63,724 nt of DNA. Source: a virus. The notes beneath the pieces were generated by a model. It had not been told where the DNA came from. It ran no database searches and saw only the letters and a list, made by a program, of their open reading frames with translations. Position numbers and translations under genes: made by a program. This document shows, one piece after another, positions 17,255 through 30,618 of the stretch. Positions within the stretch are counted from its first letter, which is position 1. Every line of letters begins with the position of its first letter. The stretch is taken from positions 1-63,724 of IMG/VR virus record IMGVR_UViG_3300044630_000814; one strand, given 5' to 3'.

Positions 17255-20200
17255 ATGCCTACATACCGGATCAAAGCCCCTGACGGTAACACCTACCGGA
17301 TAGAGGGGCCACCCAACGCGTCTCAAGCCGATGTAATCGCTGCAGTAATGAGGCAGAACCCATCGGCGGGTGTAGCTAAAGTTACGCATCAAATAAAGGC
17401 ACCTGATGGCAATACGTATGCGATCGAAGGGCCTAAGAATGCTACCCAGAAGGAAGTTGCTGCGGCTGTAATTCGGCAGAAGCCGACGGCTGGCAAACCA
17501 CCAGCACCGGTCAAGCCCACACCTAAAGCAGCGGTTGAAATCGGCAAACGCACAAAAGAACTCGATGAGAGTGCCGCGAGCCTTAATCGGATGATTGCTG
17601 AAACCCAACGCTTATCTAAGCTACCCGGCGCGACAGCAAGCATGCGGGAAAAAGCTAACGTAGCCATAGAAGAATACCGCAAAACCCTTGCGAACATCGC
17701 AAATGAAAAAGGGTACATGCAGCGCACGGGTACGCTTGTGCCCGAACGGTCCTTTGGTGAGATTGCCACAGATACACTTAAAGGACTTGGTGCCGGTGCG
17801 CTCCGTACAGTTGCGGGTATACCGAGCCTGTTGGGTGCTGTAGGTATAGAAAGTCCGGGTAAAGCATCCGAGCAAGCAGCCGAACGATTTATTCAGCGTA
17901 ACCTTGCACCTGATGAGAGCGATGCAGCCCAATTTGGTACGTTTGCGCAGCAGGGTCGGCGACTTTCTGAAGTAGCAGGTAGCGTCCTACCTGCGTTTGC
18001 CACTCGTGGCGCGTCTCGTGCAGGTATGGCTGTTGCTGGTCCACGCGCTGTTCCGATACTTACAAGGACAGAACAAGCAGCACAACTTGCATTAGGTGCG
18101 GGTCCCGGTGCTCAGCAACAGCGTCAGGCAATCGAGCAATACGAAGCTGAGACAGGGAAGGTCGTTAACCCTCTCGTACGTGCGCTTGCGCAGGCTGGCG
18201 GTGCAGCCATTGGGGCTACAGAAGTTCTCACCTTAGACGCTATGATGGCGCGGGTACCTTCCAAGTTGCGTGGGTCTATGACTTCAAAACTTGCAGGTCT
18301 TGTGGAGCGTATAGAAGCCGGTGGCATATCGCCGAAAGCTGCGGCAGCAGAAGTACGCACCCTTATGGCTGACATCCAGAAAACTGGCCGAGGCCGTGTG
18401 GGTGTCGCTATGCTGGAAGAAGGTACGCAGGAAGGTACCGCTCAGTTCGCACAGAATGTCCTCGAGAAAACGGCGTACAACTCCGAAAAGGATGTAACCG
18501 AAGGGGTCGCAGAGAACTTTATCTACGGTGCGGTTGTTGGTGGCGGCGTACGTGGGCTTACTGAGCTAGTTACAAAAGTAACAGGCGGCGTAGAAACCGC
18601 TAATAAAATTAAGTCGGACGCAAAGCTTATCGCTGCAACTATGCGGTTGCAAGAGAACCCGAACGACGATGCCGCTTTCGATACCATCGTTGAACGTATG
18701 GTGGAAAGCTACGGAATTACCCCAGAGAAAGCAGCGCTATACGCCCAACAACAACTCGGACGCGCACGCGAAGAAGGAGATACGGATGTCCCCGATGCTG
18801 ATACCGGAGTGGATGACTTCGGAGGAACTGACGCAGGCACTGCTTCTGATATCGGAACCACTCCGTCCATATCCGGTGCTACAGACGTTGGAGAGACTGT
18901 CGGAGGAGGACTGGAGCGGGCTGTTTCTGGCGTATCAACTACTGATGTTGGCGAGGGAGCGGGAGTCAGTTCACTAGACGAAACTAAGCAAATCCTTGCC
19001 GATAAGAAAGTCAAACTGACTGAACGCGTTAATGTAGCTAGGCAGCTACTGAACGACACGATACTCAACAACCCCCTCGTCAGTGTGAATGACGTTGACC
19101 AGAAGCAGTTCGATGCGGCTAAGAAGCAGCTTGCGAATGGTAAATACAATGGTGACCCCGTGGCTGCGCTGGAAGCGGTTACAGGCAAGAAGTTTGCTGC
19201 TCCTCTCGACGTCAACACGACTGTTGAGGATGTGAACACACAAGAAATCCAAGGGGGGCTCGACGCTGTCACCCAAGGAATTGCGGAAAATCAAGCGCAA
19301 ATTAAGTCCTTCATCCAAGGGATTGAGGAAAATCAAGCGAAACTTGCGGCTGCACCTGAAGTCACTACACCCCCATTGGATGTGCAAGCTACGGCTCCTG
19401 TTAAGACGGCGATTGAATCGGTCACTACCCCTGCTCCTGACGCTAGCCCTATCCCATCCTTGGCTCAAGCAAGTGCACAACAGTTGGGTATTACACCTAC
19501 GGCTGCGCCTGAAGCTGCGCCCGAAATGGCTGCGCCTGAAGTGGCCCCGCTTAGCCGTGAAGAGAAACCGGTTTATGACCCCGCAGACTACACCCCACAG
19601 GAAATCTACGACAACCTAACACGTTTTGGGTACAAAGAAGCCGAGCGCCGTGGTTATGTGTTTAACACCGCTGAAAACGGTATGTTTGGTGAAGGTGTAC
19701 GGGAAGCAAAGAACCCCGACATCCAGCCTCTAACTGACGAACAAGTCCTTTCCCTTGAGCGGGGTAGCCCCGAAGTTCTTGCCGCTTACAAAGAAGGCCA
19801 GCAGTGGGGGAAAGAACAGGTTGCAGCCGTACAAGCTGCGCCAGTAGCCGAAGAAGCCGCACTTGAAGCTGCGCCTGTACAGGAACCTGTACAAGGTTAT
19901 GTTGATACGCGGAAGCAAGAACTAGCAGCACAAGAGGCTGCGGATGTTGAAGCCGAGGCTAACCTACGGCAAGAGATTGAAGCGCGTAAGCAGCAAGAAG
20001 AAGCTGCGCCAGTAGCCGAAGCAGCCGCACTTGAAGCTGCGCCAGTAGCCGAAGAGGTTGCACCTGAGGTAGTTACTGCACCTATCGAGGAAGCAGCACC
20101 AGAAGTCGATCCTTATGCTGGCGTACTTGCGGACATTGAGGCAGCGCTAGCCGACGAGGCGATTGATGCAAGGACACATAAGCTGCTTACCTCGGCAGTA

Positions 20201-23200
20201 GAACGCCGCCTGCCGTTAGAAAAAATTGAAGCTCAACTTGATGTAGCCCGCACGCGAAGTGCTGAGCGAGCCATGGGTGCTTCCAATAGTGAACGTGCAA
20301 CTCCGAGCGAAAGGCTTCAAGGTCTTATATACCGGATGCAGGATGCGTGGAAGGTGCTTACTGGTAAGCCTATACTGGCCAATGCTAGGTTAGCAGATTT
20401 GCTGCGCGACCCAGACATTCTCAGCAAAATGAATCCTGCGCAGCGGGGGCTTGCTGCTGCCTTGGCGGATGTCATAGATGACGACGTTGACGTCTATATC
20501 GGCAATCTTAACTTTAGCCCCCAAGAAGCTTTTACCTTAGGAACTGCCACTGTTTATGACGGCGCAGCCCCCGACGTTCGTTTGCGCGGGGTGTCAACCG
20601 CAGCAAACATTGTAACCCTCCTTCACGAGGCAGTTCACATTGCTTTGATAGCTAAGTTTGGCTCGGACTTTAAGCGTTTAACAGACCTTGGCCCTGACGC
20701 TGACCCAGAAATGCTTGCATTACGCGATGAAGTCTATAACTTGATTGATGCATACAACACCATGTTTGAGGTGGAGAGTTCGGCGGACCTACTGCTCAAG
20801 GCATCCCCGTACGGCATGAAAAACCTAGACGAGTTCATCGCTGAAGGACTGACCCAACCGAGCTTCCAAAAATTCTTGGAGAAGGGTAACCTGTGGACGC
20901 GTTTCGTAGCGTTAGTGCGGAAGCTGCTTAAGCTGCAACCTAAATTCCAGCCTCAACTGGATAACGTACTAAAAGCTGGCGCTAAACTAATTGCCGCGTC
21001 CAAGAACATCGACCGTATGGAGTATGTATCGGGCACTTTTGAGCAGCGGAAAAAGGCTGCTCCTAAAGGTAAAGGTAGTGCACAAGAGAGGGTCGCTACC
21101 GGCGAAGCAGAGATTAATCGTGGTGTGGCCCAAGCACAAATGGCAGCGGACATGCTGGAGTTCACCGATGGTCTCAGTGCGGCTATCGACGGGCGCGACG
21201 GCAGCTTCTTCCTCCCCTCGATAAAAGAAGGATGGGCTTCCTTCAATGACGCTACCCGTGAATATATACTGCCCGCACTGACCAGCTCGTTCATTATTAA
21301 CGATATTGATAAGGGCCGGTTACCGCCATTGCGGCGTATGGAGACGATTGAAGCTAACATCCGTGGGGCGCAAAACAGGATGCGTGCCCAATTTGGGAAG
21401 CTAGACCGGCGTTTTACGAAGTTCGTCAACCGTACAGGGCAGCGTGTCCTTGCAACGACTATGCATGCGGCACGCATCAACGAGTTCTCCCCCTCGGACT
21501 TCTCGTCGTTAGATAATGCGCTCCAGAACGACCCTATTATGGTTTGGTACAATGACGCAATAAAGGACCCAACCGTTAGCAAGGGGCAGGTCGCTGCGTT
21601 TAAAGGCAAGAAGACCATCCGCGAGAAACAAATTAAGGCGGTCTGGAAGCTTTGGGAAGAGCTTGGTAAGCAAAAGAACGGCCACGACATTTATGTGCGC
21701 GTCCGCGATTTTTACGCTGATATGTATACTATCATGCGTACCGAGCAGAACAGCTTCATCAAGAAACTACCTATCGACGATGCGGCTAAAGAAGAGCTTC
21801 TTGTAGCGGTGGACCCCGATACTTTTGCTGAAGGGGAGGCAGACCCGAATGACCCGCATGCTGGTATCCCAGACAGCGTACGTCCCAAGGAGTACTTCCC
21901 TTTCCGCCGTTACGGTAAATATTGGCTGACGGTTAAAGGCGATGGCATAAAAACAGGCCGCGAGCGCCACCACTTCGAAACCGCTTTTGGGCGGAATGCC
22001 TTCCTGCGTAAGCGCGCCAAGGAGTTGGGTGTAGACCCACAAAATGAAAACGTTTTCGAGAAGGGTAATACCCTAGAGGACTTCCAGAATAACTTGGTCG
22101 AGAGCAGCTTGATGCTCAGCAATATATTCTCAGTGATTGACAAGGCCGTTATTTCTGGGAACTACGACACCACTAAATACGCTACACCTGCTGAAGCACT
22201 AGAAGCCATGAAGAAAGAGCTTAGGGATAAGCTCTACCAGACGTACCTCATGACACTACCAGAGCGCAGCCTTCGTAGGCAGTTTATCCATGCCGAGCGC
22301 GTGACAGGTTTCAGCAGCGATGTACTGCGTAATTTCAGGTCCAGTTCTGCACAATACGCGGTGCAAATCCCGAAGCTGCAGTATGGGTCCGACGTTAACA
22401 GCGTAATCAGCGAAGGCTATGATGCCCTTGAAGGCATGCCTGTGGACGAAAAAGCCGCCGCAAGAACTTACGTGGATGAAATGGTCCAACGGCTGCGCGG
22501 AGCCATCAACCCAGAAGCACCGAATGCATTCGTGGCGGGGGTTAGCCGGTTTGCTTTCTACGAAGTCATGTCCAGCATTGCGTCTGCTGCATCGCAGATG
22601 TTGTCCGTCCCGATCTCGGTTATGCCTAAACTCAATGCGGACTACGGGTACACCGCAGCTGCCGCTGCTTTTATGCGTTACTCCTTCATCCCGTACAGCT
22701 TCGGTCTTCCTGAGCGTGACGCAGATGGCATGTTTTCACAAGTTATGCCTTCGATAGGGACGTCAGTAGCGGTAAAAAGTAACCCTATCCGTGCCCGTGC
22801 GTTTAAGGAATTTACCGACCGCGATTTGTTCGACTCTTCTGCGGCTAGCTCCCTATTCCTCAACAACGAGATGGCGCATACATACTCTTCGTACAACATT
22901 CCGGCGGAAGTGCTCGGGCTGGCGTTTAAGGCTATGCGTCTTCCCTTCACTATGTTTGACGTGGCTTCTCGTGAGATGAGCGCCATGATGTTCTTCGACC
23001 TTGACTACGGCAAAAACCGTAAGGACGGCATGGAGCCAGAGGAAGCATATAACGCTGCTATCCAGAACACTGTTAATGGCTTGAACGAAACTATCGGTAG
23101 CCACAACTTGTTCGAGCGTCCGCGTTACATGGTCGGGCAAATCCGCCAACTGCTTTTCCTGTTCCGCATGTACGCTGTGAACCGCACCATGTTTGGTTTG

Positions 23201-24202
23201 CGTATGGGTATACAAGTCATGCGGGGTGAGAATGCCACTGGCCGTACTCGCGCTGCTGCCATACACGAACTAGGTGGCAACTTGGCAATGGTGGCAGTCC
23301 TTGGTGGTATAGCAGGTGCACCGCTGTTAGACGTGGTGTGCGGGGCTATTGATATGATCCTGCCGTCGCTCATGGATGACGAGGAAGAAGAAGAGTTCCG
23401 GCGTCAGCACCCATATTCATACAACAACTCCAAGCACCGGTTCCTGTACGAGTGGCTGCCGGAGAATTTTGGTAACCCTACACTGCCCGGTCTAGATGGT
23501 AAGCAGCATGCGCTGGCAGATGTCCTGCGTAACGGTATACCGTCCGAGCTTATCGGCGTTAACTTCGCATCTCGTGTTAGCTGGAACGGCATGTGGATAC
23601 GCGACAGCATCCCCGGAGAAAACTGGAGCGAGTCAATCGTAAACTGGCTTGAGACCAACCTGTCTCCCGGTGCGGCTATCAGTATCGAGTTCATCAAAGC
23701 GCTTGAGGATGTGTACAAGGGTGACGTTATGCGTGGTCTTGAGAAGATAGTCCCCGGCACATTCCGTGGTTCTATAACTGCCGAGCGGCTGTCAACTCAG
23801 GGGGCAGAAACCCGCAAGGGTGGGAAAATGTTCGCAAAGGACGAAATTACAGCTTTGCAGCTTAACTTCCAGCGTATGGGTTGGGCACCGAACGAGGTAT
23901 CGGATTGGCAGCGTGAGCGTATGGGCGCCCTCTCTATGATTAACGCCGTTACTGGCGAACGCACTGACCTTATGGCTAAGCTAAATAAAGCTAAGTCCGA
24001 CCCCGAAGGTTCCAGCGAGACAGTTGCTGAAGTCGAAGCCGATATCCGTGAGTTCAACAGGTTGCACCCAATACCAGAACTGCAGATTGAAGAGGAAGAC
24101 ATAGCCAAGTCTCGTAGCCGCTACCTACAGAGCGAACTGGATAGCTATCGTGGTATGCAACTTACTGCGGAGCAGAAGGCTCTTATGCTAAAGTACAAAT
24201 AA
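17255..24202 (+). CDS. Giant virion (polyvalent-type) protein with HEXXH metalloprotease motif
   Basis: At 2,315 residues this is the largest gene. The N-terminus has two copies of a ~35-residue module (YRIKAPDGNTYRIEGP and HQIKAPDGNTYAIEGP). Residues ~640-950 are a Pro/Ala/Glu-rich linker with AAPVAEE repeats. HEAVH at residues 1124-1128, with DEFIAEG about 70 residues later, fits a gluzincin-type zinc peptidase. The C-terminal half is helical with a hydrophobic patch near residue 2020 followed by DDEEEEE. Giant multidomain proteins of this type are packaged and injected with the genome to protect it or modify the host. Substrate unknown; the gene ends the rightward arm. Confidence 0.7.
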   Translation: MPTYRIKAPDGNTYRIEGPPNASQADVIAAVMRQNPSAGVAKVTHQIKAPDGNTYAIEGPKNATQKEVAAAVIRQKPTAGKPPAPVKPTPKAAVEIGKRTKELDESAASLNRMIAETQRLSKLPGATASMREKANVAIEEYRKTLANIANEKGYMQRTGTLVPERSFGEIATDTLKGLGAGALRTVAGIPSLLGAVGIESPGKASEQAAERFIQRNLAPDESDAAQFGTFAQQGRRLSEVAGSVLPAFATRGASRAGMAVAGPRAVPILTRTEQAAQLALGAGPGAQQQRQAIEQYEAETGKVVNPLVRALAQAGGAAIGATEVLTLDAMMARVPSKLRGSMTSKLAGLVERIEAGGISPKAAAAEVRTLMADIQKTGRGRVGVAMLEEGTQEGTAQFAQNVLEKTAYNSEKDVTEGVAENFIYGAVVGGGVRGLTELVTKVTGGVETANKIKSDAKLIAATMRLQENPNDDAAFDTIVERMVESYGITPEKAALYAQQQLGRAREEGDTDVPDADTGVDDFGGTDAGTASDIGTTPSISGATDVGETVGGGLERAVSGVSTTDVGEGAGVSSLDETKQILADKKVKLTERVNVARQLLNDTILNNPLVSVNDVDQKQFDAAKKQLANGKYNGDPVAALEAVTGKKFAAPLDVNTTVEDVNTQEIQGGLDAVTQGIAENQAQIKSFIQGIEENQAKLAAAPEVTTPPLDVQATAPVKTAIESVTTPAPDASPIPSLAQASAQQLGITPTAAPEAAPEMAAPEVAPLSREEKPVYDPADYTPQEIYDNLTRFGYKEAERRGYVFNTAENGMFGEGVREAKNPDIQPLTDEQVLSLERGSPEVLAAYKEGQQWGKEQVAAVQAAPVAEEAALEAAPVQEPVQGYVDTRKQELAAQEAADVEAEANLRQEIEARKQQEEAAPVAEAAALEAAPVAEEVAPEVVTAPIEEAAPEVDPYAGVLADIEAALADEAIDARTHKLLTSAVERRLPLEKIEAQLDVARTRSAERAMGASNSERATPSERLQGLIYRMQDAWKVLTGKPILANARLADLLRDPDILSKMNPAQRGLAAALADVIDDDVDVYIGNLNFSPQEAFTLGTATVYDGAAPDVRLRGVSTAANIVTLLHEAVHIALIAKFGSDFKRLTDLGPDADPEMLALRDEVYNLIDAYNTMFEVESSADLLLKASPYGMKNLDEFIAEGLTQPSFQKFLEKGNLWTRFVALVRKLLKLQPKFQPQLDNVLKAGAKLIAASKNIDRMEYVSGTFEQRKKAAPKGKGSAQERVATGEAEINRGVAQAQMAADMLEFTDGLSAAIDGRDGSFFLPSIKEGWASFNDATREYILPALTSSFIINDIDKGRLPPLRRMETIEANIRGAQNRMRAQFGKLDRRFTKFVNRTGQRVLATTMHAARINEFSPSDFSSLDNALQNDPIMVWYNDAIKDPTVSKGQVAAFKGKKTIREKQIKAVWKLWEELGKQKNGHDIYVRVRDFYADMYTIMRTEQNSFIKKLPIDDAAKEELLVAVDPDTFAEGEADPNDPHAGIPDSVRPKEYFPFRRYGKYWLTVKGDGIKTGRERHHFETAFGRNAFLRKRAKELGVDPQNENVFEKGNTLEDFQNNLVESSLMLSNIFSVIDKAVISGNYDTTKYATPAEALEAMKKELRDKLYQTYLMTLPERSLRRQFIHAERVTGFSSDVLRNFRSSSAQYAVQIPKLQYGSDVNSVISEGYDALEGMPVDEKAAARTYVDEMVQRLRGAINPEAPNAFVAGVSRFAFYEVMSSIASAASQMLSVPISVMPKLNADYGYTAAAAAFMRYSFIPYSFGLPERDADGMFSQVMPSIGTSVAVKSNPIRARAFKEFTDRDLFDSSAASSLFLNNEMAHTYSSYNIPAEVLGLAFKAMRLPFTMFDVASREMSAMMFFDLDYGKNRKDGMEPEEAYNAAIQNTVNGLNETIGSHNLFERPRYMVGQIRQLLFLFRMYAVNRTMFGLRMGIQVMRGENATGRTRAAAIHELGGNLAMVAVLGGIAGAPLLDVVCGAIDMILPSLMDDEEEEEFRRQHPYSYNNSKHRFLYEWLPENFGNPTLPGLDGKQHALADVLRNGIPSELIGVNFASRVSWNGMWIRDSIPGENWSESIVNWLETNLSPGAAISIEFIKALEDVYKGDVMRGLEKIVPGTFRGSITAERLSTQGAETRKGGKMFAKDEITALQLNFQRMGWAPNEVSDWQRERMGALSMINAVTGERTDLMAKLNKAKSDPEGSSETVAEVEADIREFNRLHPIPELQIEEEDIAKSRSRYLQSELDSYRGMQLTAEQKALMLKYK

Positions 24203-24277: not shown

Positions 24278-24472
24278 TCACATTCTCCAGACACGTAAAC
24301 CCCTAATACCATCTTCGATCACCGCTTTTATCAATACCTTGAGTTTCAAGCGTTTGGTAACCACTAGGACTTGTGCCTTAGCGCGTTTGGGGTCTAGGCA
24401 CGGGAAGAATATAGATGTCCCGCGCTTGAACTTTCTCCAGTTAACCTCGTAACTAACTCCCTCCAGCTTCAT
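24278..24472 (-). CDS. Small basic phage protein
   Basis: Sixty-four residues starting inside the 3' end of the primase gene (20-base overlap). It reads VNWRKFKRGTSIFFPC in the middle and KVLIKAVIEDGIRGLRVWRM at the end. The WRKF-KRGTS-F-PCL and EDGI-GLRVWR pattern recurs in small proteins of other aquatic phages. It is last in the leftward operon, just before the terminator. DNA or RNA binding is possible given its basic charge; function unknown. Confidence 0.6.
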   Translation of the reverse strand: MKLEGVSYEVNWRKFKRGTSIFFPCLDPKRAKAQVLVVTKRLKLKVLIKAVIEDGIRGLRVWRM

Positions 24473-27299
24473 CCTTAATCTCCACGGGCAATAAGCCTTC
24501 TACGTCCATGAAGCCATTGACCGACGTATCGAAGAACAGGGCTTGTACGCCGAGGGTGTTAATCCTCATGCCCTTCGACATCCGCTTAGTGTCGCTCTTG
24601 ATGTACACGCCGTCGTCCTTCAGCCTACGCAGGGTTTCCTTGTAGTTAATCTGGAACTGTACGCAGTACTCCTTGAACTTTTTAGCTGCGAAGAACAACA
24701 TCTTAGTGTCAGGCTCGTAGCGGATGATGAGTTCGCCCTTAGGCTCCATCTTCGGCTTAACCTCCATGTTAGAGCGGCTGTCCACTTGGTCGTCTACGAC
24801 GAGCGTGTTCTGGATGTGGCGGTTCACAAAGTCACCGATGACTTGACTCGTGTCCGTCGCTGGTGGCTCAATCTCTTGCCGCAGTGTGGTAATCATGTTG
24901 CATGCCCACTGGTATATATCGTTCATATTCCAGTCGATTAGGCCCAGCATCTTGGCGATAAAACCTGCCGTGATGTTAGCGGCGACACCAGCCGACCAGA
25001 AACGTTCGCGCTGTGTTAGACGTAGCTGCAGGTCAAGCCGAGACTGGATGTTCTGGCAGGCTTCAAACACCTCTTCCATATTATCTAGCACGTATGCCAT
25101 GAAGATAGGTCCGGCGTGGCCGTAGTTATCCATCAACTGCTGGTCGAACATCTGCTTACCTTCTTCGGTGCTGATGGCATCCGTCTGGCTAATGCGATAC
25201 TCAATTAGGCGCATCATCTCCCCGTCAGGGCTATCCTTGCGGATAGACAGCTTTTCATAGAATGATGCGTTCGACGTACATATCGAGATAGTCTGCCATG
25301 TGGTCTCGTTGATGCGCAGTTCATTACCTCCTGCGGTCATACGTTCTTTGCCCTTACCTTGGGACATCCCGTAAACCAGTTCGGAGAACTCATCAGCGTT
25401 CATGTTGGTGATTTCGTCCACGCAGTATGGCAGGTTGCACATGATAGCCAACCACTGCATCTTCGCGTTCAACGTGTCTGACTTCTTAGCAATAAGCTCA
25501 GTGGGGTGCCCATATACGCTCATGGCCATACGAGCGATGGTTGTCTTACCCGTGCCGGACTCAGGGCTTACGAGGTTGATGGCAGCACCTGACTGCTTGA
25601 GAAACTTCAAGAGCGGCGCACCGAAGGCGCTAAGCGCGGCAAAGGCATGGCCTTCTAAGCCGGGACGCCCGTATAGTGCCCACACTTCTTTCCATTTATC
25701 CAACGAACCCACCGGCCCCATATACCGTGCTAGCGGTGCCGTGACTGCCGAAGGCGGGCTATAGAGCATACCATCCCGAGTGACTTCTTGGTCGCCGATG
25801 ACAAAGCGGCTGTTGTTGTCTGCCCATCCAAATTGATTACGCATGATTTCTAACTTTCCTGTGTTCTGTGTAGCGTTCACCGACAGCATCACATAATCCA
25901 TGAACATGTCGAACTTCTTGGGGTGAATGGCTACGCTGTATGTTGATATAGCTTTGCGAAGCAGGTCTTTCGAGGACACCTCGTTAAGGGGTACCGAAAA
26001 ATCTTCTACTCCGTCGAGCGGCAGGTGGCGGCGGAAAACTAGGACTTCTCCCATCTTCCTGTCCTTCATACGCTTCACGATGTATATGTCGTTGTGGTAT
26101 ACGAGGATAGGTTCCGCTTCGTCGCCGTCGCCCTTTGGTGGCTTGCGCCATATGCCCCCACCTTCCCCACGGAAGAACGGGAACGGATACTCCGGTATAT
26201 AGAATGTTTCTGACTTAGGTCCTGTGGGTGTATCTATAACCTCTTCGACTTTGTTGCTCTTGGCTTCGTTTATCTTGCGGCCAAGATACTTAGGGCCGAG
26301 GATTTCCCCCTTCCACTTGCATCCTTGGCATAGGGTCGGGTTCTTCCCCTCGAACTTAGCGCAACTTGTTGCCCCCTTGATGGTGGCTACCTTGTTCTCC
26401 AGCGTAGCAGGGTCATACTCTGGGTGTCCTTCGGACATCATATGCACCGCTTCAGCCGCATCTTCGCACATGGCGGCGACCGATATGGCGTGAAACCAGT
26501 CGTAATAGTCTATGGTAGCACGGTTGTTATACGCATGGAGAAGCTGGGCGCATCCCTCACCCTTCTCGCTACGACGCATAATCTTGCCAAAGTTGAACTG
26601 AACGCTTTTGTTCATTGCCTTACCGAGTTCGGTAGGCTCCCACTTGGGCTGCGCTGCTAGGTGCTTCACACCTAACGTCTGTATAACCCAGTCAAAATTA
26701 ACAGGCTTACCGACGAACATTACTTCGACAGGCTTTGGGGGGTCATCTTTAAAGTTCAAAGTGCCGGGTATGCGCAGTATGCGCGCCGCTTCAAACACTG
26801 CTGCGTCCACGTAAAAGTTGTGGGTGTAGCATAAGTCACGGAGGCGGAGGGCAACAGGCTCCCACTCTTCGCGGGTTACGTCGCGGTCAAGCGTCCAGTA
26901 TGCGTGTATACCGCGCCCTGAGTTAACAAGGGTAGGCTTAGGTAGCCCTGTGAGTTCACAGAAATCCCGTAGCGCGGCAAGACCAGTCTCTTGGTCTATA
27001 TATCCGTCAGGACGGCCAGTTTTTTCGCTGACTACGGCTTTGCTTTCACCGCAGTCGATATCTAGCCATAGGGCACGGAGCGCCTTTACGTTGTCCTTGG
27101 TACGCCCTGCGTCCGTTTTATATTTAGCAACACCGAAGAAAACATTGCGTTGTTGAGAGAGGTACAGAGCCGCAACCCTATCTGCTTCCTCACGCGTCTC
27201 AACCAGCGTCTGTCTTACATCGTCTTTGCCTTTGTTACCGAAGATCGCAAACCACCCTTCAGATGGCTGTACTGTCGATAGGAGGTCAAACTCTTCCAT
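24453..27299 (-). CDS. Primase-helicase: archaeo-eukaryotic primase fused to DUF927/SF3-like ATPase
   Basis: I choose ATG 27299 (948 residues); a GTG three codons upstream is possible. The N-terminal domain has LWLDIDCGE (D80 and D82, metal ligands), SGRGIHAYWTL with the catalytic His, and ILRIPGTLNFKDD, the three motifs of archaeo-eukaryotic primases. A Cys-bearing linker (CAKFEGKNPTLCQGC) follows. The C-terminal ATPase has Walker A ESGTGKTT (K585) and Walker B YCVDEI. It should unwind DNA and prime replication with the phage family A polymerase. It is the only replicative helicase candidate here. Confidence 0.85.
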   Translation of the reverse strand: MEEFDLLSTVQPSEGWFAIFGNKGKDDVRQTLVETREEADRVAALYLSQQRNVFFGVAKYKTDAGRTKDNVKALRALWLDIDCGESKAVVSEKTGRPDGYIDQETGLAALRDFCELTGLPKPTLVNSGRGIHAYWTLDRDVTREEWEPVALRLRDLCYTHNFYVDAAVFEAARILRIPGTLNFKDDPPKPVEVMFVGKPVNFDWVIQTLGVKHLAAQPKWEPTELGKAMNKSVQFNFGKIMRRSEKGEGCAQLLHAYNNRATIDYYDWFHAISVAAMCEDAAEAVHMMSEGHPEYDPATLENKVATIKGATSCAKFEGKNPTLCQGCKWKGEILGPKYLGRKINEAKSNKVEEVIDTPTGPKSETFYIPEYPFPFFRGEGGGIWRKPPKGDGDEAEPILVYHNDIYIVKRMKDRKMGEVLVFRRHLPLDGVEDFSVPLNEVSSKDLLRKAISTYSVAIHPKKFDMFMDYVMLSVNATQNTGKLEIMRNQFGWADNNSRFVIGDQEVTRDGMLYSPPSAVTAPLARYMGPVGSLDKWKEVWALYGRPGLEGHAFAALSAFGAPLLKFLKQSGAAINLVSPESGTGKTTIARMAMSVYGHPTELIAKKSDTLNAKMQWLAIMCNLPYCVDEITNMNADEFSELVYGMSQGKGKERMTAGGNELRINETTWQTISICTSNASFYEKLSIRKDSPDGEMMRLIEYRISQTDAISTEEGKQMFDQQLMDNYGHAGPIFMAYVLDNMEEVFEACQNIQSRLDLQLRLTQRERFWSAGVAANITAGFIAKMLGLIDWNMNDIYQWACNMITTLRQEIEPPATDTSQVIGDFVNRHIQNTLVVDDQVDSRSNMEVKPKMEPKGELIIRYEPDTKMLFFAAKKFKEYCVQFQINYKETLRRLKDDGVYIKSDTKRMSKGMRINTLGVQALFFDTSVNGFMDVEGLLPVEIKDEAGGS

Positions 27300-27316
27300 T
27301 GGGCACACTCGTCACT

Positions 27317-27353: not shown

Positions 27354-27587
27354 TTAAGTAGGGAAGTTGGTGATGTATTTACGGATAAGTCCGATAAACT
27401 CGCCCTGCGGGGCGCTAACCCCGCAGAACCAGTTGTATACAGACTGCCGTGTGGCACCAAGGTCATGTGCAACTTTGCTCACAGAAACTCCGTGCTCAAT
27501 GCACTTCCTCCCTAGCTGCACACCTAGATGCCCATCGTCAGCTTCGCTATTAGCTTCAATGGTTTTGAGGCTATAGCCGTAAGTCAT
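27354..27587 (-). CDS. Cro/C1-type helix-turn-helix regulator
   Basis: Seventy-seven residues with VSKVAHDLGATRQSVYNWF, a good helix-turn-helix of the Cro/XRE class, in the middle. The start overlaps the SSB-like stop (TAATG), so the two are coupled. A small single-domain regulator between SSB and primase could control the replication operon. Its binding site may be the palindrome at 27317-27330 or the CTAAC repeats; neither is proven. Confidence 0.7.
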   Translation of the reverse strand: MTYGYSLKTIEANSEADDGHLGVQLGRKCIEHGVSVSKVAHDLGATRQSVYNWFCGVSAPQGEFIGLIRKYITNFPT

Positions 27588-28501
27588 TAATCGTCCTCAT
27601 CACTACCCCAGTTGCTAATAACAGCAGCTAGGTTGGCTTTAGGTTCTGCGGCAGTGTCACTTTTAGCAGCAGGACGCTTCTTGGGTTCTTCAAGCTCTTC
27701 TTCGGGTTCGTCCGAGCGAGAGATTTGCGGTGCCGGTGCAGGGGCGGCTGGCTGCTTCTTTACGCCGTCTTGCTGGGCTACGGTTAGTTCGCACATACGC
27801 TTTGTACCTGCGTCCGCTTGTGCGCGTTTTACGAGTTCCTGCTCTTCGTCACTGGTACCACGCACGGGGGTAAAGAGAAGCTCCATGCTATCGGCGTTGA
27901 GGTCGTAGCTGATGTTGGTCACTACCGTATCCGGCGACTCGTGGTTAGCCAATAGGTAACGTACATAGCTTTCAAACGGATGCACATTACCTACACCCTT
28001 ACCGAAGAGCGACTTGGCTGGGACGTTGAACTGGTACACTTCTCCCGAAGGGTCGTTAGGCATGATAACTGCAATACGGCGCTGATAGCGGCATGCGCGA
28101 CCCTTACCGTTAGTACCCGAGCCGACTACGTTCTTAGGGCAACTTACGCAGTTGGGCGATTGTTTGTTACCCGCAGCGGCTTCTGGAATATCACCGTTGT
28201 TCGACCAGCAGTCTGGGAGCGTTGGCTTAGCGTTAGGGTCGTAAGCACCGGCATAAAACACGCGGCTAACCTTGGGTAGTGCATGGACGATGATAACATC
28301 AATGTCGCCACGCACCGCATCGCCAATCTGCTCACCATTTACGAGGCGCTTAAACGTCCCGTTGGTGTTGGTTTGGATGCGACGGTTAGTGCCGCCACCC
28401 GCACCACTGGCCAGAGTTTTGGCAAGTTCACTGAGTTCACGACGACCGACTGACGTTGAGACGGCACCGGCTTGCTTAAAAATAGAAACTTCATTGGACA
28501 T
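27587..28501 (-). CDS. Putative single-stranded DNA-binding protein with Zn site
   Basis: A 304-residue protein with four Cys (C98, C118, C121, C137) able to bind zinc and a Pro/Glu/Lys linker. It ends in an acidic tail (NWGSDEDD), the tail type through which SSBs bind replication partners. The core (IDVIIVHALPKVSRVFYAG, YQFNVPAKSLFGKG) predicts beta structure. It lies directly upstream of the regulator and primase-helicase. The SSB role is inferred from architecture and context. Confidence 0.65.
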   Translation of the reverse strand: MSNEVSIFKQAGAVSTSVGRRELSELAKTLASGAGGGTNRRIQTNTNGTFKRLVNGEQIGDAVRGDIDVIIVHALPKVSRVFYAGAYDPNAKPTLPDCWSNNGDIPEAAAGNKQSPNCVSCPKNVVGSGTNGKGRACRYQRRIAVIMPNDPSGEVYQFNVPAKSLFGKGVGNVHPFESYVRYLLANHESPDTVVTNISYDLNADSMELLFTPVRGTSDEEQELVKRAQADAGTKRMCELTVAQQDGVKKQPAAPAPAPQISRSDEPEEELEEPKKRPAAKSDTAAEPKANLAAVISNWGSDEDD

Positions 28502-28513
28502 GGGTATATCCCC

Positions 28514-28918
28514 TTATTTAGATGTAGGTTTACGGACTTGTACGACGTACTTGGTATCGGCTTGTAGGCCAACAGGAAGAACCTCTGGGTTGTCTGCCAA
28601 GAACTGCTTCAAGTTACCATTATGGATGCGTTGTTCCAGCAGGAAGGGTGCATCATGTTCCTTGATGAACTGATACATCGCATCCCAGTCGCTCGTCCAG
28701 TACCGAGTGTTAACCCGACGAGAGACCGTCCCTGCGTTGGTGCGTAGGCTATCCACATCCAGCGTATTGCAGATGTCGAGTAAGCCTCCGGCAACAAGGT
28801 CTAATTGTTCTTTGAGGGAGGCAAGTTCTTCCTTGTGCTCTTCCTCTTTGTCACGGATGACATCCCGGATTCGCCGGTACGCCGTGACCATTTCTTCTAC
28901 TGACTGTTCGTTATCCAT
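28514..28918 (-). CDS. Conserved coiled-coil phage protein, possible nuclease-inhibitor-like
   Basis: From ATG 28918 (134 residues), with AAGGAG six bases upstream; the ATG just before it at 28921 is too close to the ribosome site. Residues ~8-50 form a charged coiled coil (VIRDKEEEHKEELASLKEQL). The second half has VSRRVNTRYWTSDWDAMYQF and LPVGLQADTKYVVQVRK. It is the first gene after a structured leader RNA and a promoter. Its coiled coil plus small alpha/beta domain recalls Gam-like host-nuclease inhibitors, but that is only a resemblance. Confidence 0.55.
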   Translation of the reverse strand: MDNEQSVEEMVTAYRRIRDVIRDKEEEHKEELASLKEQLDLVAGGLLDICNTLDVDSLRTNAGTVSRRVNTRYWTSDWDAMYQFIKEHDAPFLLEQRIHNGNLKQFLADNPEVLPVGLQADTKYVVQVRKPTSK

Positions 28919-28934
28919 CATTTGCTCCTTCGTG

Positions 28935-29039
28935 TTGGGGTAGGCTCACCCGACTTAACCTGTCAATTCAGGTCCGCCTTTTTTATCAGCGCCGTCGCAA
29001 CAGGATTTCCCACCGCCGTGGGCACTGAGCCTACCCCAA
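28935..29039 (-). ncRNA. Structured 5' leader RNA, riboswitch-like
   Basis: Two 14-base arms, TTGGGGTAGGCTCA (28935-28948) and TGAGCCTACCCCAA (29026-29039), are exactly complementary and enclose 77 bases. Inside are hairpins at 29009-29022 (CCCAC/GTGGG) and 28958-28973 (ACCTG/CAGGT), separated by a purine-rich strand. The predicted transcription start (~29037) falls in the first arm. The second arm ends a few bases before the AAGGAG of the downstream gene. This is the layout of a cis-regulatory RNA with a closed P1 stem. I do not recognise a known riboswitch class. Confidence 0.6.
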
Positions 29040-29043
29040 ACCC

Positions 29044-29071
29044 TACATACACTACCCTTTGACATTGTCAA
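29044..29071 (-). promoter_or_regulatory. Promoter P1, before leader RNA and SSB/primase operon
   Basis: On the minus strand TTGACA (29066-29071) is followed after 16 bases by TATGTA (29044-29049). The -35 lies in a 13-base palindrome TTGACAATGTCAA. Sequence and spacing closely match the promoter at 38454-38481, including shared GTGTATG and GGG. It overlaps the end of the SNF2 helicase gene by four bases. Confidence 0.65.
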
Positions 29072-30618
29072 GCGGTACCGCTTACCATTTCTCGATATAG
29101 GTCGATAATTTTTTCGTGGTTCTCGATATTGCCACGGAGCATGCCGTACAGCCGCTCCTCCACCGGACTGCCCTTGATGTGCACAATGGTCATGGCGTTC
29201 TTCTGGCCGGGGCGATTGATACGGGCGTTTGCCTGTAGGTAGGTTTCCACGCTGGTTACTGGCGCATACCAGATGATTGTGTCTGCTGCCGTAAGCGTAA
29301 GCCCGTGCGATGCAGCCTGTGGCTGTATGAGTAGCACATGTGGGTCTTTCCGTGACTGGAAGTCCTCGACAATCTCACTGCGCTTGTTCATCGACACTTT
29401 CCCGTTGATGACTGCGCAACTAATCTTGTGCTTGGTTAGGTGGGCTTCCAGTAACTCGATGGTGTGCGTGAACGGTATGAATACCAGTACCTTGCTAGTG
29501 GCTTCTTCGATGACCTCCGTAACTACGTTCAAGCGGTTTGATACGTCGAACTCGATGACTTCTTTAGTGTCCGTGTAGACCGCACCACCGCTGATTTGCA
29601 GGAGCTTGTTTATCTTGGTCGCTGCGTTGACCGCGCTGACCTCCTCACCTGCTGCTTCGATGAGCATCTCGTTCTTAAGCTCGTTGTAGTACTTACGCTG
29701 CTGCGGGGTGAGAGGCGCTTCACGTTCAGTATACGTCACTTCCGGTAGGTCGAGGCAGTCCTTCTTCTCAAACCGGATGGCTGGCTGAAGCACACGATGC
29801 ACGATGCGATCAGCGCCGGGTCGAGGTGCCCACTTGAACTGGGTTACCTTTGCCATAACCGAGTCGCGGAACTGGCCGAAATATCTAGGGCAACCGTCAG
29901 GGTTAACCAGCTTGGCGAGACCAAACGCATCGACAGGGCTTTGTGCTGCTGGCGTACCAGTAAGCATCCATAGATATGGGTTAGTGTGTTGCAGGATTTG
30001 CGCGAGCACTTTCCAGCGGTTTGTCTGTGGGTTCTTATAGGCGTTCGCTTCGTCCACTACGATAAGGTCAAAACCACCAGCTATAATCTCGTCCTTGACG
30101 ACAGCTACGCCGTCGAAGTTGATGATGACGAACTCAGCGCCAGCGGCGATAATCTTCTTGCGTTGTTTGGCATCACCGTGGGCGACAGAACAAGACCGGT
30201 GCATAGCAAAGGTGAACATGTCGCGCTGCCATGCCGACTTCATAATCGAGAGAGGTCCAAGCACAAGGACGCGGTTAATCTTACCTAAGTTCAATAGGTA
30301 GTCCGCTGCCCAGATGACGCTTGCCGTCTTACCCGTACCCTGTTCGTTAAAGCAGAAGGCGCGTTTGTGTAGGGTAAGGAACGATGCGGTTGCCTCTTGG
30401 TGGGTGAATGGTTTGAACTTGCCGGTCCACGCGTAGTCGCGCTTGATAGGCGACGGAACATCGGCGAAGCCAAGGGATGCCAGCGTTTGGGCTTCTTTTA
30501 ACCCCCACTTGACGGCCACTTCGCCTGTTTCGATGATTACGCTTTTAGGTATGCTCTGGGTTATTAGGCTTGGGTCGTCAGTCGTTAGGACCAACGCACG
30601 GTTTTCAACGATTTGCAT
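29068..30618 (-). CDS. SNF2-family DNA helicase
   Basis: A 516-residue superfamily 2 ATPase. Motif I is NEQGTGKT (residues 91-98), motif II is VVDEANA (D189, E190), motif III is LTGTP and motif VI is QANARINRPGQ. It has two RecA-like domains and no extra domains. Phage SNF2 proteins of this size probably remodel DNA at forks or during recombination. It is followed by promoter P1 and preceded by the small basic gene at 30643. Confidence 0.85.
   Translation of the reverse strand: MQIVENRALVLTTDDPSLITQSIPKSVIIETGEVAVKWGLKEAQTLASLGFADVPSPIKRDYAWTGKFKPFTHQEATASFLTLHKRAFCFNEQGTGKTASVIWAADYLLNLGKINRVLVLGPLSIMKSAWQRDMFTFAMHRSCSVAHGDAKQRKKIIAAGAEFVIINFDGVAVVKDEIIAGGFDLIVVDEANAYKNPQTNRWKVLAQILQHTNPYLWMLTGTPAAQSPVDAFGLAKLVNPDGCPRYFGQFRDSVMAKVTQFKWAPRPGADRIVHRVLQPAIRFEKKDCLDLPEVTYTEREAPLTPQQRKYYNELKNEMLIEAAGEEVSAVNAATKINKLLQISGGAVYTDTKEVIEFDVSNRLNVVTEVIEEATSKVLVFIPFTHTIELLEAHLTKHKISCAVINGKVSMNKRSEIVEDFQSRKDPHVLLIQPQAASHGLTLTAADTIIWYAPVTSVETYLQANARINRPGQKNAMTIVHIKGSPVEERLYGMLRGNIENHEKIIDLYREMVSGTA

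What the first reader, a model, noticed from the sequence alone, without database searches (positions are those of the whole stretch)
28925..29071. Riboswitch-like leader RNA in front of the SSB/primase operon
Seen: 14-bp perfect outer stem, two inner hairpins, a purine-rich joining strand, a predicted transcript start at the first base of the stem and the ribosome site just after the last. Such a closed stem next to a Shine-Dalgarno is typical of cis-regulatory RNA. It does not match a riboswitch class I know. It may sense a metabolite, or bind the SSB-like protein for autoregulation.
Basis: partly seen in the sequence, partly recalled or inferred. Interest (0 to 1): 0.78.

Follow-up and report, generated by a model that had tools for sequence, protein, structure and literature searches.

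The report
Optional structured RNA in phage leader
In front of a phage replication operon sits a small, strongly folded RNA of a family not in the public RNA library; related phages gain and lose it as a unit and some carry other structured RNAs in the same slot, so it looks more like an interchangeable accessory RNA than a classic riboswitch, and what it does is unknown.

Summary
The structure is real and lies on the minus strand, 28935-29039: a 14-bp perfect stem closing a conserved core, between a promoter (-35 29066-29071) and the Shine-Dalgarno (28925-28930) of a gp33-like (DUF7307) gene. The core occurs in 19 further viral contigs (15 distinct sequences with the window's). 9 of 17 modelled base pairs show changes on both sides (0 of 500 shuffles reach the covariation score). 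No Rfam 15 family matches.

The riboswitch reading fits less well. Relatives 88-96% identical around the slot lack the RNA, some keeping a bare 5-6 bp hairpin; a helicase tree needs at least 8 gains or losses. Relatives carry other structured RNAs, and one a tRNA-Gly gene, in the same slot. In two distant phages the RNA lies between gp33 and gp34, or after gp34. I found no terminator and no conserved SD-sequestering fold. The second gene does encode a likely gp32-like SSB, but the two distant phages have an unrelated protein there; gp33 is the only neighbour family shared by all three lineages.

Best reading: a new phage structured-RNA family, carried as an optional module; function unproven (trans-acting accessory RNA about 0.45, cis-regulation about 0.35).

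The parts
29066..29071 (-). -35 element TTGACA (overlaps the helicase stop codon)
   Evidence: sequence; conserved across the clade
29044..29049 (-). -10 element TATGTA (weak; TATACT/TATAGT in many relatives); predicted start 29037-29039
   Evidence: inference for the start
28935..29039 (-). the whole RNA module (105 nt)
   Evidence: fold z -3.65; absent as a unit in close relatives
29026..29039 (-). P1 outer stem, 5' arm UUGGGGUAGGCUCA
   Evidence: covaries between W and L097
28935..28948 (-). P1 outer stem, 3' arm UGAGCCUACCCCAA
29009..29022 (-). side hairpin P1x CCCAC-GGCG-GUGGG, shared in form with L097 (UCCAC/GUGGG) and L375 (CCGCU/AGCGG) only
28946..29007 (-). conserved core as matched by covariance model R1 (76.1 bits)
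29001..29004 (-). inner stem P1b, 5' arm CCUG (pairs with CGGG 28949-28952)
   Evidence: pairs covary across homologues
28949..28952 (-). inner stem P1b, 3' arm CGGG
28989..28998 (-). P2, GCG-ACGG-CGC; invariant, so not confirmed by covariation (an alternative CGCU/GGCG pairing is possible)
28974..28988 (-). joining strand UGAUAAAAAAGGCGG
   Evidence: GGCGG invariant in all homologues
28958..28973 (-). P3 hairpin ACCUG-AAUUGA-CAGGU (ACAUG/CAUGU in L358, AUACG/CGUAU in L375)
   Evidence: covariation
28925..28930 (-). Shine-Dalgarno AAGGAG of the gp33-like gene
28514..28921 (-). gp33-like protein (DUF7307 / Pam3 gp33-like, below Pfam's cutoff; phrog_13900), 135 aa, first gene behind the RNA
27587..28501 (-). 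304-aa gp32-like single-strand DNA-binding protein candidate
   Evidence: OB-fold matches, RB69 gp32 Z 6.6; invariant Cys 98, 118, 121, 137
24453..27308 (-). primase/helicase-like protein (DUF927; phrog_25314, phrog_8841)
29068..30618 (-). SNF2-family helicase, upstream gene

Best explanation
A new family of small phage RNA, carried as an optional module between the promoter and the Shine-Dalgarno of the gp33 operon. Shown by comparison: it folds into a domain closed by a long stem, with a nearly invariant core of about 45 nt, and it enters or leaves genomes as a unit bounded by that stem. Inferred: in this clade transcription starts at about the first base of the stem, and the long stem isolates the domain from the ribosome site behind it. 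Most likely (about 0.45) it works as an accessory RNA through its core, binding a host or phage partner in trans, either still attached to the mRNA or cut free, with the gp33 leader serving as a promoter-proximal docking site for such RNAs and for tRNA genes. Control of the gp33 operon in cis is the main rival (about 0.35). No target is known.
For: Structure and strand: covariation in P1 and P3, 9 of 17 pairs changed on both sides, 0/500 shuffles, slid controls far lower; several G-U pairs on the sense strand. Module: filled and empty sites compared in phages about 95% (L096/L097), 92-98% (L087/L104) and 88-89% (L098/L100) identical, the indel lying between -10 and Shine-Dalgarno; W's own near relatives have GGGGTA-TGCC-TACCCC at the spot; at least 8 changes on the tree, L096 and L097 having identical helicase fragments. 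Transfer as a unit: W and L097 share 96% over 81 nt of RNA, against 64-66% identity in gp33. Slot: relatives carry other structured elements (class B z -4.2 to -5.8) and a tRNA-Gly there. No fixed target gene: before gp33, between gp33 and gp34 (L358), after gp34 (L375). No expression platform: no terminator on the sense strand, no conserved Shine-Dalgarno sequestration. One strong copy per record. Phage tRNAs as counter-defence are a precedent for RNA cargo (PMC11555353, abstract).
Against: All 20 records (window included) with the RNA have it beside gp33 or gp34, which also fits a functional link with gp33. No processing site, separate terminator or trans target was found. In the window's clade the RNA always sits just before the same gene's ribosome site. 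Mean predicted openness of the Shine-Dalgarno is lower with the RNA than without (0.61 against 0.82; 11 and 7 sequences), so an effect on translation is not excluded.
Confidence: 0.45

Rival explanations
1. Cis-regulatory leader: a metabolite riboswitch, or a site bound by a phage protein (gp33 the best candidate) that controls translation of the gp33/SSB/primase operon.
For: Position directly between promoter and Shine-Dalgarno in the window's clade; aptamer-like invariant core; the gp33 family is the only neighbour shared by all three lineages; T4 gp32 is a precedent for autoregulation from a folded leader (PMC535899).
Against: Missing in near-identical phages with the same operon; no terminator or conserved Shine-Dalgarno-pairing alternative; P1 is 11-14 bp in this clade and predicted permanently closed (pair probability 0.9999); after gp34, not before it, in L375.
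Confidence: 0.35
2. Autoregulation by the SSB-like protein specifically, as in T4 gene 32.
For: The second gene is a likely gp32-like OB-fold SSB; T4/RB69 gp32 bind a folded 5' element in their own leader (PMC535899).
Against: In L358 and L375 the same RNA stands beside Pam3_Gp34, which shows no detectable relation to the window's SSB-like protein (hhalign probability 0.1%); the SSB-like gene is present in phages without the RNA; the RNA is followed by a Shine-Dalgarno within 3-10 nt, not by a >40-nt less structured stretch with UUAAA repeats.
Confidence: 0.07
3. Only a 5'-terminal hairpin that stabilises the mRNA or keeps the ribosome site open; the core is passive.
For: Relatives without the core keep a bare 5-6 bp hairpin at the same place (for example L083, L082, L085, L010, L011, L012).
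Against: A passive filler would not keep about 45 nt nearly invariant across three phage lineages while the stem sequence changes freely.
Confidence: 0.07
4. A DNA-level element (replication origin or single-strand initiation hairpin) rather than an RNA.
For: Lies in the replication region beside helicase, SSB-like and primase-like genes.
Against: Absent in near-identical phages that must replicate; no fixed position in the cassette; begins at a promoter.
Confidence: 0.04

Closest known systems
Orphan riboswitch candidates / small metabolite riboswitches
   Same: Closed by a stem next to a Shine-Dalgarno, with a nearly invariant core.
   Different: No Rfam match, no expression platform seen, no fixed regulated gene, present or absent among near-identical genomes.
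T4/RB69 gene 32 translational operator
   Same: Folded element at the start of the transcript of a replication gene in a phage that encodes a gp32-like SSB.
   Different: T4 has a ~28-nt pseudoknot plus a >40-nt less structured UUAAA-repeat stretch before gene 32 itself; here a long stem-closed domain stands before gp33, close to its ribosome site.
Phage-borne tRNA genes and other small stable RNA cargo
   Same: Optional small RNA genes near a promoter; one relative (L038) has a tRNA-Gly in this slot.
   Different: ARAGORN finds no tRNA or tmRNA in the window, and the fold is not a cloverleaf.
5' stabilising hairpins of phage and bacterial mRNAs
   Same: Strong hairpin at the predicted 5' end; relatives have just such a mini-hairpin.
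   Different: Here the hairpin carries a large invariant core.

Membership tests
Any Rfam 15 family | score at or above a family's gathering threshold | tested here: not met
   no match for the window; only chance-level matches at relaxed thresholds for W, L007 and L358, none for L375
Riboswitch | conserved, covarying aptamer-like structure in a leader | tested here: met
   leader position
Riboswitch | expression platform (terminator or Shine-Dalgarno-sequestering alternative fold) | tested here: inconclusive
   no sense-strand terminator; no consistent sequestration, but predicted openness is somewhat lower with the RNA
Riboswitch | consistent regulated gene or pathway | tested here: inconclusive
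   gp33 in one clade, gp34 in L358, genes after gp34 in L375, always in the gp33/gp34 region
Riboswitch | binds a small ligand | not testable with these tools
   needs in-line probing
T4 gene 32 translational operator | 5' folded element followed by >40 nt of less structured UUAAA/UAAA repeats over the ribosome site | tested here: not met
   Shine-Dalgarno 3-10 nt behind the stem, no such repeats (definition from PMC535899)
T4 gene 32 translational operator | bound by the phage's own SSB | not testable with these tools
   needs a binding assay
gp32-like SSB (for the 304-aa protein) | OB fold of the gp32 core | tested here: inconclusive
   RB69 gp32 Z 6.6, rmsd 4.6 over 157 residues, other OB folds next; Foldseek itself not significant
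tRNA / tmRNA | recognised by ARAGORN | tested here: not met
   0 genes in the window

The most novel reading that the evidence does not exclude
The leader of the gp33 operon is an exchangeable docking site for small RNAs: related phages swap unrelated structured RNAs (this family, several others, and tRNA genes) in and out of one promoter-proximal slot, and these RNAs act in trans in the conflict with the host, as an RNA counterpart of anti-defence gene islands.
Probability: 0.3. Interest if true: 0.85.

Novelty: new variant of a known kind. Interest (0 to 1): 0.62.

Why it matters
It is a structured RNA family absent from Rfam 15, with base-pair covariation, in uncultivated phages, and it sits in a slot where unrelated structured RNAs appear in related genomes. 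Natural filled/empty pairs make its effect on operon expression or on the host directly testable, which is rarely possible for orphan RNAs.

Tried and rejected
Plus-strand reading: rejected, since the genes and the G-U pairs are on the minus strand. Known RNA families: none (in one search only the L038 tRNA scored). Known ribozymes: considered from memory only (no hammerhead CUGAUGA/GAAA pair); the Rfam search is the actual test. Cultured phages, plasmids and E. coli genomes by blastn with core queries: no true match. Bacterial genomes: the genome contigs pattern was too short and returned chance coding matches; exact patterns in 398 and 386 genomes of two phyla found nothing, and the covariance-model scan of 9 genomes scored only some candidates, so absence from bacteria is not proven. 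One viral pattern had a wrong gap and missed the known members. A last relaxed viral pattern found only chance matches besides known members. The lowest-energy inner hairpins were rejected in favour of the comparative fold. P2 could not be confirmed because it never varies. For the gp33 model no convincing structural relative appeared. Gain or loss in the window's own lineage is not settled.

Full report
Observation. The interval 28925-29071 is the gap between the SNF2-helicase gene and a 135-aa ORF, both on the minus strand, so the RNA must be read there. The transcript strand holds TTGACA-N16-TATGTA, then UUGGGGUAGGCUCA at 29039-29026, pairing perfectly over 14 bp with 28948-28935, then AAGGAG at 28930-28925 and ATG at 28921. 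The fold is stronger than shuffled sequence (z -3.65, 0 of 200).

Homologues. Helicase and gp33-like proteins were used to fetch relatives from IMG/VR. The closest relatives (helicase 97%) have only GGGGTA-TGCC-TACCCC (or a close variant) where the window has the RNA, but other, more distant relatives have the RNA in the same place. Context-free pattern scans of the viral collection then found further members. In all there are 19 contigs besides the window, and 15 distinct sequences with the window's. A last relaxed scan gave only chance coding matches besides known members.

Structure. A MAFFT alignment of nine sequences, not fitted to any structure, was tested against P1 + P2 + P3. 94.6% of cells pair, 9 of 17 pairs have changes on both sides, the covariation score is 0.381 against 0.196 in shuffles (0 of 500), and slid structures give at most 3 double-changed pairs. 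A second set of five sequences with the long outer stem gives the same answer for P1, except that one of its measures (pairs with a change on both sides) is reached by 57 of 500 shuffles. G-U pairs stand on the sense strand, where they would be A-C on the other, which fits an RNA. P2 is invariant and therefore unproven. The comparative fold lies 7.6 kcal/mol above the predicted minimum for the window, so single-sequence folding probably misplaces the inner hairpins. The window, L097 and L375 share an extra side hairpin of differing sequence. Rfam 15 has no match.

Gene context. The first gene behind the RNA is gp33-like (DUF7307, below Pfam's cutoff; phrog_13900), the second a 304-aa protein, the third primase/helicase-like. 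The AlphaFold model of the 304-aa protein best matches OB folds, with RB69 gp32 first (Z 6.6) and four invariant cysteines in the family. Z values of this size can arise from a common arrangement, so this is a lead. In L358 the RNA lies between a DUF7307 gene and a Pam3_Gp34 gene; in L375 it lies just after Pam3_Gp34. Pam3_Gp34 shows no profile similarity to the window's SSB-like protein. Gp34 is common in cultured phages (504 records); in eight annotated cassettes, which also include relatives of the SSB-like protein, no RNA of this family was found.

Gain and loss. On an 88-row helicase tree, presence of the RNA needs at least 8 changes. L096 and L097 have identical helicase fragments, yet only L097 has the RNA. 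Filled and empty sites differ by an indel between the -10 element and the Shine-Dalgarno, in pairs about 88-96% identical. W and L097 share 96% over 81 nt of the RNA, while their gp33 proteins share about 64-66%, which suggests movement of the RNA as a unit. The promoter is conserved across the clade with or without the RNA. Each record scanned has a single strong copy (a second hit of 17 bits in L375's record is weak).

Other RNAs in the slot. The empty slot is about 40-65 nt. In a subclade it is 230-430 nt and holds other elements: class B, with a 12-bp stem and three-way form (z -4.2 to -5.8), class C, class D with a core AAAGCGGAUGCU...AGACGCAGCGAGUA, class E, and in L038 a tRNA-Gly. None of these classes was tested for covariation, and D and E do not fold convincingly better than shuffles. 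Only the tRNA is known to Rfam.

Mechanism. Two readings remain. As accessory RNA: optional, mobile as a unit, in a slot shared with unrelated RNAs, in different gene positions in three lineages, without a visible expression platform. As cis-regulator: always near gp33, adjacent to the ribosome site in one clade, with an aptamer-like core. I prefer the first at about 0.45 over the second at about 0.35. SSB autoregulation as in T4 (PMC535899) is less likely because the RNA lacks the T4 layout and occurs beside an unrelated protein elsewhere.

Limits. The hosts are unknown. No expression data were available. The bacterial search covered few genomes. Collections hold fragments. The direction of the event (gain or loss) in the window's own lineage is open.

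Noticed in passing
L034, L036, L037, L038, L043, L044, L045, L052, slot between helicase and gp33: A second structured element ('class B', 72-76 nt): 12-bp outer stem, two inner hairpins and an A-rich joining strand, folding z -4.2 to -5.8; no Rfam match.
   Followed up: partly
L034-L055 (several loci), same slot, just before the gp33 Shine-Dalgarno: 'Class C' element: 5-bp hairpin with conserved loop AGGUGGCGCUAAUAACA followed by a GUGGGG...CCCCAC hairpin; stem sequences appear to covary by eye.
   Followed up: no
L036, L042, L047, L048, L055, same slot: 'Class D' element: conserved AAAGCGGAUGCU ... AGACGCAGCGAGUA around a variable hairpin, closed by a short stem that differs between phages; in some followed by ACCA.
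   Followed up: partly
L038:5197-5272: A tRNA-Gly (TCC) gene in the same slot as the structured RNAs.
   Followed up: yes
L375:7032-7085 (minus strand): Another stem-closed element (UUGCCG...CGGCAA) directly before the RNA of this family, after gp34.
   Followed up: no
window 17255-24202: 2315-aa ORF with DarB-like antirestriction and weaker virion RNA polymerase profile matches.
   Followed up: no
L014-L018, L041, L046, slot between helicase and gp33: In some relatives the slot seems to hold a small reading frame instead of an RNA, so it may accept protein cargo too.
   Followed up: no
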